Source: Peptococcaceae bacterium BRH_c23
Lineage (GTDB): Bacteria > Bacillota_B > Desulfitobacteriia > Desulfitobacteriales > Desulfitobacteriaceae
Length of the DNA: 5,115 bases
Direction: 5' to 3'
NCBI GenBank assembly: GCA_000961805.1
Contig: LADV01000017.1
Location: 1-5,115 of the forward strand
In this document: in pieces, positions 170-5,013 of the stretch
How the letters are laid out: each line of letters opens with the position of its first letter
How positions within the stretch are numbered: position 1 is the stretch's first letter
The notes under the pieces: model-generated
What the model was told of the DNA's origin: nothing
The model's input: the letters and a program-made list of their open reading frames with translations, nothing else
Databases searched by the model: none
Translations under genes and position numbers: made by a program

Positions 170-197
170 TCAAATTCGGATCCGGATCCGAATTTGA
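170..197. repeat. perfect 28-bp palindrome
   Basis: The sequence from 170 to 197 equals its own reverse complement, with no spacer; the centre is GGATCCGGATCC. It lies in the linker part of the DUF3102-like fragment, coding a run of Ser-Asp-Pro-Asp-Pro-Asn. It has no T-run and is not an obvious terminator. It could be chance expansion of GGATCC units or a binding or recombination site. Confidence 0.8.
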
Positions 198-568: not shown

Positions 569-1099
569 CTACTCCACTCCCAAAGCCTTAAACACCGCAT
601 CTTCCGGACTTTGATAAAACGCCATCTGAAACTTCGCAAAGAGTTCTGATGGAACGGTGGCAATATCCGTGGCCGATGCCATTGGAAGTAATACTTTCTT
701 GGCTCCAGCATCAAAGCACACTTGCAACGTGTTGGCTAACTCTTCTACTTTATTGATGGTGCCACCGAGACTCATAGAACCCAATACGACTAACTGACTT
801 TGAGGAGGTTTCCCCATAGCTCCAGAACACATCGCGATAAAGGCTGTCAACGTCAGCTCAGGGGTCATGCCGATGCCTTGGATATCTTGAACATACAGCA
901 GGTAATCCTTGGTCTTAGTGCTTATCGAACCGCTGATGCTCCTACTATTGGCTTTAAAATAATTAAACGCAGTCAGGGTGTTTTCTTTGGCTTCCCTGCT
1001 GTTTCCAAGCCCAGATCTCTCAAATTTTCCAGATCCGGTCACGACTTCCGTTTCAATCTTATACACTCCGATCATCCCGGAATCCCCGCGACCAAAGCT
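569..1099 (-). pseudogene. brxL: brxL remnant: C-terminal Lon-like domain
   Basis: BrxL is the AAA+ and Lon-like protein that ends type 1 BREX operons. Only its C-terminal part remains: about 175 codons of a protein usually near 680-700 aa. The segment from IGVYKIETEV through KANSRSISGSIST, YLLYVQDIQGIGMTPELTLT, VVLGSMSLGGTINKVEELAN, FDAGAKKVLLPM and the tail SPEDAVFKALGVE follows the BrxL C-terminus closely. The AAA+ module, Walker motifs and N-terminal DNA-binding part are gone. The layout resembles a Lon proteolytic fold, but no Ser-Lys catalytic pair is evident. The frame is open from after a TAA at 1100-1102, and the ATG at 1073-1075 has no clear ribosome binding site and is probably an internal methionine. 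The 5' end is fused out of frame to the start of pglZ. Two TAG codons end the gene in tandem (569-571 and 566-568). Confidence 0.85.
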
Positions 1100-1244
1100 T
1101 TACCTCACCTAATTCCAGCTCATCGACGACCTCTTGGAAATCCCCATCAGCATCGTACCAAAAGATGATCTGCCGTTGGGCCCCGTCTCGACACGGTGCC
1201 TGAAATTTATCGGTCAGGGCTGCATTTATCTGGTCATGATTCAT
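1059..1244 (-). pseudogene. pglZ: pglZ (brxZ) remnant: N-terminal 61-codon frame
   Basis: PglZ is the alkaline-phosphatase-superfamily protein of BREX, normally about 850 aa. This frame starts at ATG 1242-1244 with an AGGTG ribosome binding site about 6 bases upstream. It reads MNHDQINAALTDKF, then RQIIFWYDADGDFQEVVDEL and GEVKLW, which matches the start of type 1 PglZ (MN-DQI--AL, IIFWYD-DG-F--DELEL). After LW the reading runs into sequence that is brxL in another frame and stops about ten codons later. The whole phosphatase domain is missing. It follows the nested ATPase-HNH block, as expected for the pglX-pglZ boundary of a type 1 operon. A stable product is unlikely. Confidence 0.78.
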
Positions 1245-1328
1245 GGTTTCACCTACTATTTCTATACATTAATCATAAGGCTACAGCCTTAAACTTGGGA
1301 TACGCCTGATTCCTCTCCGCCCATTCAT

Positions 1329-1688
1329 CTAATCCCCCAAGTTTTTGTCAAAGACCTTATCCAGAAGTAATTCATCCGTTTTAATAATGGGATTGTTATT
1401 CAGTTTTCCATCGATCATATACTTATCCACATAAAAGAATTCTTCACCACAGACATGCTTTTGCGGCACTATTGAGTCACAGAGCTCTCTGATTTTGTCA
1501 AACTGTCTTTCTCTTTTCAAACCATTTAACCTGTCCATAAACAGGTTCACAAAGTTAATCTTTTTGACGAACTCTTGAGGTAAAGTGTATCTAAATGTTT
1601 CTTTCAAGAACTCACAACTCTCGACTTGATTAAGGGTTGAATAGTGCTGGTACCACTTCTTTGAATTCTCCAATAGTTCTACAGACAA
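1329..1688 (-). CDS. hypothetical protein, 119 aa, third gene of the nested block
   Basis: The frame starts with TTG at 1686-1688, with AAAGGTG about 10 bases upstream; an in-frame TAA lies just before, so no earlier start is possible. It encodes a helical, charged protein (LLENSKKWYQHYSTLNQ, FLKETFRYTLPQEFVKKINF, NLFMDRLNGLKRERQFDKIR, EFFYVDKYMIDGKLNNNPII) with no signal peptide or membrane segment. The alternating helices around FDKIRELCDSI resemble a TPR-like helical repeat, but I do not recognise the family. It lies downstream of the HNH gene and before pglZ, so it may be part of the same defence cassette. The frame ends at DKNLGD. One extra G in the G run at 1334-1338 would carry it on through GLDEWAERNQAYPKFKAVAL to a TGA at 1273-1275, so the annotated end may be a frameshift or a deletion scar. 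Confidence 0.6.
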   Translation of the reverse strand: MSVELLENSKKWYQHYSTLNQVESCEFLKETFRYTLPQEFVKKINFVNLFMDRLNGLKRERQFDKIRELCDSIVPQKHVCGEEFFYVDKYMIDGKLNNNPIIKTDELLLDKVFDKNLGD

Positions 1689-1773
1689 TATTGTTTCACA
1701 CCTTTATATGGAATATGATTCCTTCAGTCCCTAAATCCACTAAACTTGCCACCCATCCTCCTAGACCATTTTA

Positions 1774-2417
1774 TTAAAGCTTGTCAGCAAATGTATTCAT
1801 CAAAAATGGATATCCCCAACTCTTTGACATTGATTTTTAATATCTTTAAAATCTTCTACAGCACCGGCTTTTACTGCTATTCTTAGCAATTCCTTTAATT
1901 TATTAACAATATCTCTACGACGTTCGATCAAACCCTCTCTATTTAGGCCAGTATGTTCGATTGTGGTTTTTGCCCTCAAATCGTTATTAATAGACAGTAT
2001 TTTCGCCGTTTCTATATCTATTTCTAAGTAATTCTTTATCTCATCGAATGTTGGGTTTAAAATTGGATTTTCGTCATCCCATTTATCCCCTTTATATTTT
2101 TTGCTATTACACACTTCGCAAGAATAATTGAGATTACACCATTCAAAACATAGGTGTGGAAATTTACTTTTAGGCATTAAATGTTCTATTCTTTCAAACA
2201 CCTGAACCCCAATTGGGGATTCACAAAAACAACACTGCCCCTCAAACATTTCATGTAATGTTTATTTGACATCTTCTTGTCTATATTTATCTACGAATTT
2301 TTGCGGGATATCATTAAACGTACTATGTTTCGGAACTTCCGCTAACAGGTCAACAGTCCATTTTTTTGCATTTTTCTTTAGGCTTTCTGGTTGTGCCAAC
2401 CTATCTACTTTGTGCAT
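1774..2417 (-). pseudogene. HNH endonuclease (PtuB-like), broken by a stop and a frameshift
   Basis: The ATG at 2415-2417 overlaps the end of the ATPase gene by 17 bases and has GAGGGA about 8 bases upstream. The first 51 codons (MHKVDRLAQPESLKKNAKKW to KYRQEDVK) run into a TAA at 2262-2264. The same frame then continues TLHEMFEGQCCFCES, RIEHLMPKSKFPHLCFEWCN, NYSCEVCNSKKYKGDKWDDE and NPILNPTFDEI. That is a zinc-binding HNH core: CxxC, the E-H pair, a second CxxC, and NP. It ends at a TGA at 1800-1802 after GDIHF. Adding one A to the A5 run at 1834-1838 instead gives KKSMSKSWGYPFLMNTFADK followed by Leu and a TAA at 1774-1776, a tail more like HNH relatives of this type. An ATPase followed by HNH matches Septu and retron effector pairs. 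An internal ATG at 2247-2249 could restart past the stop but lacks a ribosome binding site. Confidence 0.85.
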
Positions 2418-3744
2418 TTCTCTTCCCTCGTTCCTTTAGGATGTCCTCAATTGAGCCAAGTTCCGCTAATTCAACAGCAGCATCATTTTGGGGAAGATTT
2501 GAATACACATCATCTTTCAATTGATTTAATTTGGTATTTTCTTCATCTGATAATTGGTTTTTGATTTTCTTAAACGACAGCTGTTTGATTTCTTCAAGTT
2601 GTGGTTTTACTTCTGGCGATCTTTCGTCAACTCCCATGAATGTATTCAAAACATCATTTACTCGCCAGCCGTATGGAGATTTTATATATTTAGTATCTAG
2701 CTCAATAATCGGTGTACTAGTATCTGAGTCAAATAGACTTATAATTTTTTTATCCTTACAGGACGCTATGACAACTGGAGAATGGGTAGTCGCAATAAAT
2801 TGAACATATGGAAATGTTTGCATTAGAGCCTCAACAATCCTCCATTGCCATTTCGGATGAATATGTAAATCAATTTCATCAATTAAGACAAGTCCAGGGG
2901 TTTTCTCTGTAACGTCACGTCTTAAATCAGGATTTAGTATGGCCATTCTATAAGCAATATCCGCAACCATTCCAATAAGGCTACGATAACCTGCACTCAT
3001 GAATCTAAGTGGCAAGGCCTCGCCATTGGAAAAATACACAAGTTCTCCTGTCCGCTCATCATAGAAGATGGTACTATTTATATCTGTGTTTTCTAAAACA
3101 CCAATAAACTTACCAACAGCTTTTTTTACTGATTCATATTCAGCAAGTTCTGTTTTTTTCTGATAGGCGATGCGCTCCATTCTCTGACACCAGTTGGTAA
3201 GCATACTAATATTGGACTCGGAAGCCAAACAATGAGTGTAACCTACATTACGCATATAATTTACTGTAAATACATCTTCCCATTTATCTCGTTTTTGCGT
3301 CCACATTCTTCCTGCGCTTTGATAGCTGATAACTGGAAACACATTGTTTTTGTTTTTTGTGAGTGTTGTAGCATATTTGGAAATATTTTTAGTTGTAACC
3401 GTTCTAGTTGTTTTCTTTTGGCTACTTTTGCTTCTATTCCATACAATTTCTTCGTCCGCAAAATCCGCGATACATCTAACTACGGTAGGGGTAAAGTATT
3501 CAATATCGTATGAACCATCACCTACTAAATGGCCTATGCTTCTGACATCGTCAGGTGTGAAATGTATTGTAGTTATACCATCAATCCCAACTATAAATCC
3601 ACCTAATCCAATAGCTATTGCTTCCAACACTGATGTTTTACCCATTCCATTATTACCTATAATTAAGTTGAACTTATTATCAAAATCAAAGGTGTTATGT
3701 TTAATTCCTCTAAAGTTTTCAATGGTAATACTTTTTAAAATCAT
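2401..3744 (-). CDS. AAA/ABC-type ATPase, PtuA-like defence ATPase (447 aa)
   Basis: A complete frame starts at ATG 3742-3744, with a strong AGGGGTG ribosome binding site about 8 bases upstream. It begins MILKSITIENFRGIKHNTFD, typical of SMC/RecF-like (AAA_21/AAA_15) ATPases. Visible motifs are Walker A GNNGMGKTS (residues 30-38), an ABC-like signature MSAGYRSL (249-256), Walker B GLVLIDEID (284-292) followed by the D-loop LHIHPKWQ, and the switch histidine in ATTHSP (318-323). The C-terminus (YGWRVNDVLNTFMGVDERSP and a charged helical tail) resembles the region of PtuA-type and retron-associated ATPases that contacts the HNH partner. No TOPRIM domain is seen, so it is not an OLD nuclease. 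In Septu the ATPase is thought to hold or gate the HNH nuclease. Here it precedes and overlaps an HNH gene. It is visibly more AT-rich than the BREX remnants, fitting separate origin. The family is clear; the PtuA assignment is by context and motif only. Confidence 0.9.
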   Translation of the reverse strand: MILKSITIENFRGIKHNTFDFDNKFNLIIGNNGMGKTSVLEAIAIGLGGFIVGIDGITTIHFTPDDVRSIGHLVGDGSYDIEYFTPTVVRCIADFADEEIVWNRSKSSQKKTTRTVTTKNISKYATTLTKNKNNVFPVISYQSAGRMWTQKRDKWEDVFTVNYMRNVGYTHCLASESNISMLTNWCQRMERIAYQKKTELAEYESVKKAVGKFIGVLENTDINSTIFYDERTGELVYFSNGEALPLRFMSAGYRSLIGMVADIAYRMAILNPDLRRDVTEKTPGLVLIDEIDLHIHPKWQWRIVEALMQTFPYVQFIATTHSPVVIASCKDKKIISLFDSDTSTPIIELDTKYIKSPYGWRVNDVLNTFMGVDERSPEVKPQLEEIKQLSFKKIKNQLSDEENTKLNQLKDDVYSNLPQNDAAVELAELGSIEDILKERGKRNAQSR

Positions 3745-3824
3745 AAAATATCACCCCTCAGTTTAATTACAGACTATGCACCAAGTGCTAATCACCAAGA
3801 CTACATTAACCAATTATTGGCATT

Positions 3825-3853
3825 ATCATTGCGCGCTAGTTTGTCATTCTCAA
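3825..3853 (-). promoter_or_regulatory. candidate promoter for the ATPase-HNH block
   Basis: On the minus strand TTGAGA (3848-3853) is followed after exactly 17 bases by AATGAT (3825-3830), matching sigma-A boxes at five and four of six positions. It lies in the 126-base gap between the pglX remnant and the ATPase and would give a leader of roughly 75 bases. The nested block may therefore have its own promoter rather than rely on BREX read-through. This is a pattern match only. Confidence 0.3.
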
Positions 3854-3870
3854 TCCTTTTAACTCATTCG

Positions 3871-4050
3871 TCAGATCTTCGCCAACACCTTCTGAAACTT
3901 AGCGTAATTGACGACGACCCCGTCATCCAGATCTATCTCAATCTGCTGATCAGCCAGATTATGAATCACTTCGTCATATTTTTTTAGTTCGTCCATCTGT
4001 TTGGTTAAGACTTTCAACCGCTTCGTCGCTTTAGTCTTTTCTTGCGTGTA
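3871..4050 (-). pseudogene. pglX: pglX remnant: C-terminal ~55 codons
   Basis: PglX is the adenine-specific DNA methyltransferase of BREX, normally about 1,200 aa. The minus-strand frame is open from after a TAG at 4051-4053 to a TGA at 3871-3873. It reads KATKRLKVLTKQMDELKKYD, then HNLADQQIEIDLDDGVVVNY and AKFQKVLAKI. The motif ADQQIEIDLDDGV-VNY-KF is characteristic of the extreme C-terminus of type 1 PglX. No start codon or ribosome binding site is evident, and all catalytic methyltransferase motifs are gone. Its 5' end overlaps, in another frame, the end of the brxA frame, so brxA and pglX were joined by a deletion. Its position just before an inserted block and pglZ agrees with operon order. 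Confidence 0.78.
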
Positions 4051-4538
4051 CTATTAATCAAACCCGCCTCAAAGAGTATTATACTATAGACCTGTGACAA
4101 TTTTTTGAGCGTCGATTCCTGCCACCCTGCCACTTTAAGACTTTGTTCTGCTTTATTGTTAAAGAAGATGCAAAAATCCTTAGGTTCTAGTTCCTGCTCT
4201 CCTAGCCGTACTTTTTCCAGATATACTTCTTCTATAAACTCTAGAAATAGCCGATTCGTTTTCATGATCGCTATTAAGGCCACGAGTTTGCTTGTATGGA
4301 GAGAACCTTGAACTAGTAGGTTTAACAGTATTTCATCTAGAACTGCTACTCGCTTAAGCGTTGCACTTAGTAGCTTATCCAGGCTTTTATTTGTGGCGTA
4401 CTGGAACAGGTTTTCGTCAATAATTTTTGCACTGATTTCTACACTAGAGAGCCCTGCTAAGGTTAGTTTGGCGACTTGCTTCAGTTCAACATACAAAAAG
4501 GGCTCACCCGTGAGATTTGCGAAATACTGTGGTACCAC
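4014..4538 (-). pseudogene. brxA: brxA, truncated at the 3' end (DUF1819)
   Basis: BrxA (DUF1819) is the small first protein of BREX operons, reported to bind DNA, and is usually about 190-200 aa. The frame starts at GTG 4536-4538 with GGAAG about 7 bases upstream, and an in-frame TAA shortly before excludes a longer start. Family signatures run in order: NLTGEPFLYVELKQVAKL (residues 8-25), ENLFQYATNKS (42-52), LKRVAVLDEILLNLLVQGSL (61-80), KTNRLFLEFIEEVYLEKVRL (93-112), FFNNKAEQSLKVAGW (125-139) and LSQVYSIILFEAGL (147-160). From about residue 163 the sequence becomes a basic out-of-frame tail, KKRLKRRSG, that is antiframe pglX. The fold is nearly complete, so a product could still be made, but brxB and brxC, which should follow, are absent. 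It is the most intact BREX gene left. Confidence 0.87.
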
Positions 4539-4669: not shown

Positions 4670-4801
4670 CTATAATAATCTCTTTTCGGAACAGCTAACA
4701 TACGCTTGTCCTGCAGCAATGATGTGGTCAAGCACAGATATTGAAATAGGTTCTAAGGCAACCTGGATCCTTTTCGTTACTTCAATATCTTGAGGCGAAG
4801 G
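4670..4801 (-). pseudogene. radC: radC-like JAB-domain protein, C-terminal fragment
   Basis: RadC proteins carry a JAB/MPN metalloprotease-like domain and are common on mobile islands; their role in DNA repair is doubtful. The minus-strand frame reads PSPQDIEVTKRIQVALEPIS, then VLDHIIAAGQAYVSCSEKRLL, and stops at TAG 4670-4672. This follows the RadC C-terminus (PS--DIEVTKRL--AG--LGI-VLDHIII----YVSLKEKGLL), though it has drifted: EP for the usual AG, and AAGQ for IGDG. The upstream metal-binding HxHPSGD motif is missing. The frame stays open further upstream, to about 4880, but that sequence (TDTEYCSI) no longer looks like RadC, so the fragment probably begins near 4801. It is not functional. 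It sits between the tRNA side of the island and brxA. Confidence 0.7.
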
Positions 4802-4903
4802 AATACTGCAATACTCCGTGTCCGTCAGCAACGACTGCTCCGACTTCAATGATCTCGGGGAACCAGACTCTCACTCTTCAGTATCTTTTGTGCACTTAAA
4901 GGC

Positions 4904-4939: not shown

Positions 4940-4971
4940 CATTATCATGTGTCATGGCTATATGAAAATAA

Positions 4972-5000
4972 AAAATAGACCATTCAAAATGGTCTATTTT
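4972..5000. terminator. 13-bp perfect inverted repeat, possible bidirectional terminator
   Basis: AAAATAGACCATT (4972-4984) is the exact reverse complement of 4988-5000, with a 3-base loop CAA. Both strands end the stem with a run of T, so it could terminate transcription in either direction, although the stem is short of G and C. Confidence 0.55.
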
Positions 5001-5013
5001 CTGGTCGGCATTT

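What the first reader, a model, noticed from the sequence alone, without database searches (positions are those of the whole stretch)
569..4538. A type 1 BREX operon collapsed on both sides of a retained nested gene block
Remnants of brxA, pglX, pglZ and brxL occur in correct operon order and orientation, and each keeps only the part consistent with two internal deletions: brxA start and pglX end on one side, pglZ start and brxL end on the other. What survives between them is an ATPase-HNH cassette that is not part of core BREX. The locus was either selected to keep the cassette or is frozen mid-decay. The remnants are recognised from conserved motifs; the history is inferred.
Basis: partly seen in the sequence, partly recalled or inferred. 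Interest (0 to 1): 0.75.

Follow-up and report, generated by a model that had tools for sequence, protein, structure and literature searches.

The report
Collapsed BREX operon, broken nested Septu
A bacterial anti-phage operon (BREX) has lost most of its genes through two internal deletions, leaving gene stubs around a second, nested anti-phage system (Septu) that is itself broken, so this is a recent ruin of known parts rather than a new system.

Summary
Minus-strand stubs of BrxA (start), PglX (end), PglZ (start) and BrxL (end) lie in BREX type 1 order and match their families strongly. An intact relative (L126, BrxL end 93% identical) places both breakpoints nearly to the base. About 7.6 kb is missing between brxA and the pglX tail (w4041-4037) and about 3.9 kb between pglZ and brxL (w1095-1092). 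The two sides of each break share 5 and 4 bp, and both fusions are out of frame. The upstream radC is truncated too. The nested cassette is Septu, but not an intact survivor. ptuA is full length; ptuB has a stop at codon 52 and a frame change near codon 193, both absent from the nine full-length relatives aligned. "Kept by selection" is therefore unlikely; "early decay" fits, because the BrxL stub shows no excess amino-acid change. The pglX-pglZ gap is a published hotspot for nested defence genes. I found inserts in 14 of 29 loci, without the window's PtuAB in the gaps searched. Each part is of a known kind. Relic pglX tails in two relatives' gaps are the one fresh lead.

The parts
4670..4804 (-). 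radC, last 44 codons and stop only; upstream neighbour of brxA in an intact relative
   Evidence: 87% identity over 46 aligned codons to the 225-aa RadC directly upstream of brxA in L135; NCBIfam RadC 2.1e-9, model residues 169-211 of 212
4014..4538 (-). brxA: native start, about 169 of 199 codons, then a short wrong-frame tail
   Evidence: PF08849 6.4e-55; 80% aa identity to the 199-aa BrxA of L126 over residues 1-169
4037..4041 (-). junction 1: 5-bp tract shared by brxA and pglX; about 7.6 kb missing relative to L126
   Evidence: blastn blocks and base-level alignment
3871..4041 (-). pglX, last 56 codons and stop
   Evidence: PADLOC PglX 8.2e-18; PglX 1123-1180 of 1180; 148 of 171 bases identical to L126
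3807..3870 (-). leader between pglX and the cassette, with a promoter-like site (TTGAGA, 17, AATGAT), shared with L126 and with the relic tail of L127
   Evidence: 17 promoter-like sites found in the window, 13.9 expected, so the site is not significant by itself
2401..3744 (-). ptuA (Septu ATPase), full length, 447 aa
   Evidence: PDLC00298 5.2e-177; 85-90% identity to its five nearest relatives
1774..2417 (-). ptuB (Septu HNH nuclease), broken: in-frame TAA at 2264-2262 (codon 52) and a frame change near codon 193; the native end is in another frame and reaches about 1774
1800..2249 (-). 149-aa ORF from an internal ATG of ptuB, holding the HNH core
   Evidence: PDLC00337 1.8e-34
1329..1688 (-). 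119-aa ORF, unknown; possibly the rear of a frame-broken gene starting near 1752 (inference)
1092..1244 (-). pglZ, first 50 codons
   Evidence: PADLOC PglZ 2.2e-13; 80.8% DNA identity to L126
1092..1095 (-). junction 2: 4-bp tract shared by pglZ and brxL; about 3.9 kb missing relative to L126
569..1095 (-). brxL, last 174 codons and stop (ORF from an internal ATG at 1075)
   Evidence: PADLOC BrxL 4.5e-59; 86% DNA identity to L126

Best explanation
This is the recent ruin of a type 1 BREX island. Shown: a locus that in relatives reads (radC)-brxA-brxB-brxC-pglX-[cassette]-pglZ-brxL lacks here about 7.6 kb (brxA end through most of pglX) and about 3.9 kb (most of pglZ and of brxL), each between short shared tracts, and radC has lost its front. 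The Septu pair sat in the pglX-pglZ gap, between the two deletions, and so is still there. From known family roles: BREX cannot work here, because BrxB, BrxC, the PglX methyltransferase body, the PglZ body and the BrxL AAA body are missing. Inferred: the deletions arose by slippage or microhomology-mediated deletion, and Septu is dead or nearly so, because ptuB is stopped at codon 52 and loses its native C-terminus. At most a 149-aa HNH core could be made from the internal ATG. In a working Septu both the ATPase of PtuA and the HNH motif of PtuB are needed, and tRNA-Tyr is cut on infection (published for an E. coli Septu, PMC13096335, passages seen).
For: Family matches of all four stubs. Four colinear DNA blocks to the intact L126 with jumps at w4041 and w1095. 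Shared 5-bp and 4-bp tracts and out-of-frame fusions. Truncated radC, with the full gene next to brxA in L135. ptuB stop and frame change, absent from nine of nine full-length relatives aligned. P0130, a different sequence, has the same altered C-terminus and starts at the same internal Met. The BrxL stub has 8 and 11 amino-acid-changing differences to L125 and L126, which differ from each other by 12, so there is no excess on the window's branch.
Against: No locus with intact BREX and this same PtuAB in the gap was found, so the ancestor is inferred from relatives with other cassettes. The window's own genome is not held, so reads and neighbouring DNA were not seen. The stop of ptuB was not seen at DNA level in a second strain; P0130 only starts at the same Met. 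PtuA is open with two changes at 129 columns invariant in 21 relatives, which would also fit a gene still in use.
Confidence: 0.83

Rival explanations
1. The cassette was kept by selection: PtuA works, and a split PtuB (or the 149-aa HNH core by translational restart) still gives a reduced Septu, while BREX was shed as a burden.
For: PtuA is full length and conserved. The internal ATG at 2249 opens the whole HNH core. P0130 shows the short form in another sequence. PtuA is in 16 contigs of its cluster.
Against: The nine full-length relatives aligned are 213-214 aa and keep both the front and the end. I see no ribosome-binding motif before the internal ATG (by eye). PtuB has two separate lesions. 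PtuA has two changes at otherwise invariant columns, against 0 or 1 in its five nearest relatives.
Confidence: 0.11
2. Assembly artefact: the two BREX junctions are chimeric joins, and an intact BREX exists in the organism.
For: The host genome is not held, so read support could not be checked.
Against: Shared tracts of 4-5 bp are far below what usually misleads assemblers (general knowledge). The ptuB damage does not depend on those joins and recurs in part in another sequence. Two independent joins in the same order and orientation would be needed.
Confidence: 0.04
3. The short BREX proteins are a functional reduced set (a mini-BREX or decoys) rather than remnants.
For: The stubs are free of internal stops over about 450 codons.
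Against: The fusions are out of frame; catalytic bodies are absent; the BrxL stub's native start is gone; L126, L127 and L129 carry full-length forms of the BREX genes visible there.
Confidence: 0.02

Closest known systems
BREX type 1 (brxA-brxB-brxC-pglX-pglZ-brxL), as in L126
   Same: Gene order, orientation and sequence of the four stubs; radC upstream of brxA in relative L135
   Different: brxB and brxC absent; brxA, pglX, pglZ and brxL are fragments; it cannot act as BREX
Septu type I (PtuA ATPase and PtuB HNH nuclease)
   Same: PtuA full length; PtuB sequence present, overlapping ptuA by 17 bp at its start; operon order
   Different: PtuB is broken by a stop and a frame change
PARIS pair (ATPase and DUF4435) between pglX and pglZ of the Salmonella BREX (StySA; PMC9009780 passages, PMC11341690 section 6)
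   Same: Same insertion place; an ABC-type ATPase with a partner nuclease
   Different: That BREX is whole in the wild-type strains and the partner is not an HNH protein
OLD-ABC ATPase and HNH pairs in BREX loci (PMC12839542, section 35 part 1)
   Same: An ATPase-HNH dyad embedded in a BREX locus
   Different: The BREX host here is collapsed and the HNH gene is broken; I did not see their supplementary tables, so whether they include Septu of this lineage is unknown

Membership tests
BREX type 1 | Six core genes in the order brxA, brxB, brxC, pglX, pglZ, brxL | tested here: not met
   Four of six are present as fragments in that order; brxB and brxC have no match above noise
BREX type 1 | PglX methyltransferase body | tested here: not met
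   Only about the last 57 of 1180 residues remain
BREX type 1 | PglZ catalytic body | tested here: not met
   Only residues 1-50 of 852 remain
BREX type 1 | Sequence descent from a BREX-1 locus | tested here: met
   Colinear DNA blocks at 79-86% identity to intact L126
Septu type I | PtuA ATPase, complete | tested here: met
   447 aa, PDLC00298 residues 1-422 of 423, 5.2e-177
Septu type I | PtuB HNH protein in one open frame | tested here: not met
   Stop at codon 52 and frame change near codon 193
Septu type I | Infection-triggered tRNA cleavage | not testable with these tools
   Published for an E. coli Septu (PMC13096335, passages); no experiment here
Retron type I-A (Ec78-like) PtuAB | Reverse transcriptase and ncRNA beside ptuAB | tested here: not met
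   None of the window ORFs scanned is a reverse transcriptase, no Rfam match at gathering threshold, and retron PtuA and PtuB models score far below their cut-offs; only the 5,115-bp window was looked at

The most novel reading that the evidence does not exclude
The 3' end of pglX is a seam at which BREX islands trade nested defence cassettes: an incoming pglX with its own downstream cassette recombines into the resident pglX and leaves a short relic pglX tail. Two relatives' loci carry such relics (L066, L127), and the same pglX tail and leader border the Septu block here. Cassettes would then be exchanged, and outlast their host operon, independently of BREX.
Probability: 0.25. Interest if true: 0.5.

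Novelty: new member of a known kind. Interest (0 to 1): 0.3.

Why it matters
It shows, with breakpoints, how a large defence operon falls apart around a nested defence system, and that the nested system need not be a healthy survivor. Surveys that count PtuA or BrxA matches as working systems would miscount this locus. The relic pglX tails in relatives are a concrete, testable trace of how cassettes enter the pglX-pglZ hotspot.

Tried and rejected
Own genome: none held. PtuA in genome contigs: 19 loci, the best 45% identical (best segment); no BREX gene was noticed by eye in the ORF lists of the four loci I printed (L001, L002, L003, L005). PtuA in viral contigs: none. Window against phages and plasmids, megablast: none. 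PtuA by tblastn in plasmids: 102 records, none at 60% identity or more; their surroundings were not looked at. PtuA in Bacillota genomes: 2 of 299 at E<=1e-80, one of them the genome of L002; no BREX gene noticed in the two short loci. The repeat from another centre again gave 2 of 299, and the listed rows are mostly the same genomes. PtuA in 45 genomes of the family of G159: 0 of 45 at E<=1e-60; the tool warns that an empty answer without a positive control shows nothing. I chose G159 after a dsrA search because its 4,926,837-bp contig and 41% GC fit Desulfosporosinus acidiphilus as I recall it; that name comes from no call.

The 119-aa ORF: one protein, itself or nearly so (99%), among 3 candidates; nothing in plasmids; weak Pfam, NCBIfam, PADLOC and PHROG matches taken as noise; a weak phmmer match (E 0.017) to an ORF of L058, not followed; a single-sequence model with mean pLDDT 37, not searched. 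Junction 1 as a DNA pattern in viral contigs: 0. The short BrxL ORFs of G374 and G390:C142 were considered as shared truncations and dropped: both lie at contig ends, and G374 reads on into normal brxL.

Gap count: 33 loci were given to the script; 4 (L060, L065, L068, L128) lacked a visible pglX end or pglZ start, leaving 29. Of the loci fetched, not given: L077-L087 and L090 (other BREX-like lineages, BrxL 38-45% identical to the references) and L088, L089 and L125 (BrxL fragments). Not all insert ORFs were scanned against families: for L059 three of six, for L127 two of three, for L131 one of two. The pairwise identity lines for L127main are out of register and were not used; the alignment in the same call was. 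A 22-bp blastn match in L064 was not counted as a relic tail.
Full report
WHAT IS THERE. Everything of interest lies on the minus strand. Reading 5' to 3': a radC end (w4804-4670), a brxA start (from 4538), a pglX end (4041-3871), ptuA (3744-2401), a broken ptuB (2417 to about 1774), an ORF of 119 aa (1688-1329), a pglZ start (1244-1092) and a brxL end (1095-569). The stubs match their families far beyond chance: BrxA 6.4e-55 in Pfam; PglX tail 8.2e-18, PglZ start 2.2e-13 and BrxL end 4.5e-59 in PADLOC. Intact BREX-1 proteins from Mesobacillus and Ligilactobacillus plasmid records place each stub at the expected end of its protein. BrxB and BrxC give nothing that I take as more than noise (best E 0.30 for BrxB; 0.014 for BrxC, over ptuA).

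HOW IT GOT THAT WAY. The named close protein relatives of the cassette are from Desulfitobacteriaceae and Desulfosporosinus assemblies, so the host is probably of that group (inference). In 45 genomes of one family that I believe to be this one, 7 carry a BrxL relative at E<=1e-30; the three best are 93-95% identical to the stub. One of these, L126, has a complete brxA-brxB-brxC-pglX-[five ORFs]-pglZ-brxL. Its DNA aligns to the window in four blocks: L126 955-1518 with w4594-4031, 9153-9395 with w4041-3807, 14339-14520 with w1273-1092, and 18458-18986 with w1095-567. Taken at the shared tracts, the window lacks about 7,645 bp between the first two blocks and about 3,941 bp between the last two; these sizes are for L126. 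At base level the two sides of each jump share GAAAA (w4041-4037) and TTGG (w1095-1092). Both fusions are out of frame. Such tracts suggest slippage or microhomology-mediated deletion; with roughly 20% DNA divergence from L126, the tract lengths are estimates. Another relative, L135, shows a full radC (225 aa) directly upstream of brxA. The window keeps only the last 44 codons and stop of that radC, 87% identical over 46 aligned codons. So the island is cut in three places, not two.

WHAT THE CASSETTE IS. PtuA and PtuB are the ATPase and HNH nuclease of Septu. PtuA is full length and 85-90% identical to its five nearest relatives. It has two changes at the 129 columns invariant in 21 relatives; those five relatives have 0 or 1 by the same count. 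PtuB is damaged. Codon 52 is TAA where nine of nine aligned full-length relatives have Gln (8) or His (1). From about codon 193 the frame changes, so the native end, still encoded, lies in another frame. A second database sequence, P0130 (149 aa, differing from the window at two residues), has the same altered end and starts at the same internal Met; its upstream DNA was not seen. The 149-aa ORF from the ATG at 2249 holds the HNH core; I see no ribosome-binding motif before it (by eye). The 119-aa ORF found no relative but a near-identical protein. It may be the rear of a frame-broken gene, because a start preceded by a ribosome-binding-like motif lies at 1752 in another frame (inference).

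AGE. The BrxL stub differs from L125 and L126 by dN 0.020 and 0.028 and dS 0.82 and 0.92, that is 8 and 11 amino-acid-changing differences, against 12 between L125 and L126. There is no excess on the window's branch, and the BREX stubs have no internal stop over roughly 450 codons. The BrxA stub has dN 0.116 and dS 0.855 to L126, with no third sequence compared. The collapse is therefore recent compared with the split from these relatives. 'Frozen mid-decay' is right in the sense of 'caught early'; 'selected to keep the cassette' rests only on an open ptuA.

HOW ORDINARY IS A CASSETTE THERE? In 348 Bacillota genomes, 47 have a BrxL-family match at E<=1e-60. I fetched 37 regions from these and 9 from the family search, and added two plasmid records. 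Of 33 loci given to the gap script, 29 show both the pglX end and the pglZ start: 14 have a gap of 343-7,220 bp and 15 a gap of 70 bp or less. Contents recognised among the insert ORFs scanned: Schlafen-type proteins (L056, L075), AAA proteins (L062, and L064 with a PD-(D/E)XK domain), RAMP proteins with an HD-domain large protein (L059), ABC-type ATPases of PADLOC candidate types M07, HEC-01 and HEC-02 with partners where scanned (L126, L127, L131), and a helicase with a PLD-type end (L127). Four of the fourteen (L061, L066, L072, L132) gave no family match other than PglX itself. By blastp no gap held the window's PtuA or PtuB; the one hit, 43 residues of an ATPase of L131 at E 7e-4, is the common P-loop region. 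This hotspot is published. PMC11341690 (section 6 read, other passages seen) reports about 9,000 genomes with pglZ and pglX co-localised and about 7,000 with genes between them, and a PARIS system inside the Salmonella BREX. PMC9009780 (passages seen) describes the ATPase-DUF4435 pair between pglX and pglZ. PMC12839542 (passages, and part 1 of 2 of section 35) reports ABC ATPases paired with HNH and other nucleases in BREX loci. So a nested ATPase-HNH pair is a known kind of thing. I saw no report of Septu inside a collapsed BREX in the listings of my searches, which cover open-licence PMC papers only and show capped lists.

A SIDE RESULT. In two of the 29 loci, both among the 14 with inserts, an extra relic of the pglX tail lies inside the gap: 303 bp at 94% in L066, and 70 bp (24 codons) at 84% in L127. 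In L127 the end of the helicase gene runs straight into the relic tail and then into the leader that the window and L126 share. The simplest reading is that a second pglX with its own downstream cassette recombined in, leaving the old tail. It is a lead, not a proven mechanism, and it is the most novel reading my data allow.

MECHANISM AND VERDICT. BREX from this locus cannot work, because BrxC, the methyltransferase and PglZ are gone. Septu probably does not: in an E. coli Septu both the Walker motifs of PtuA and the HNH motif of PtuB are needed and tRNA-Tyr is cut (PMC13096335, passages seen), and here PtuB lacks its front quarter and its proper end in any single frame. Each part is of a known kind. 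The value lies in clear breakpoints and in correcting the idea of a preserved cassette.

Noticed in passing
L066:5588-5935 and L127:9748-9888: Extra copies of the pglX 3' end inside the pglX-pglZ gap, as if left by recombination that brought in another pglX with its cassette.
   Followed up: partly
L059:7646-14788: Six ORFs between pglX and pglZ, of which two of three scanned are RAMP proteins and the third, 994 aa, has a weak HD domain: looks like a type III CRISPR effector set nested in BREX.
   Followed up: partly
L072:9482-13833 and L074:9736-14809: pglX split into a front piece ending near reference residue 850 and a rear piece, with one (L072) or two (L074) other ORFs between, in two genomes.
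   Followed up: no
L089:9726-10463: A C-terminal BrxL fragment of 245 aa in the middle of a contig, with no other BREX gene recognised nearby by blastp: possibly another collapsed BREX.
   Followed up: no
L001:2609-5370: In an Anoxybacillus contig a RadC-like ORF lies directly upstream of ptuA and ptuB, without BREX noticed; radC also neighbours brxA in L135 and in the window.
   Followed up: no
window 170-197: Perfect 28-bp palindrome (14-nt arms, no spacer) just before a DUF3102-type ORF end at 173-3.
   Followed up: no
window 4970-5002: Terminator-like hairpin with a 15-pair stem upstream of the radC stub; the window has 3 such sites where 3.7 are expected in shuffles, so it may be chance.
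   Followed up: no
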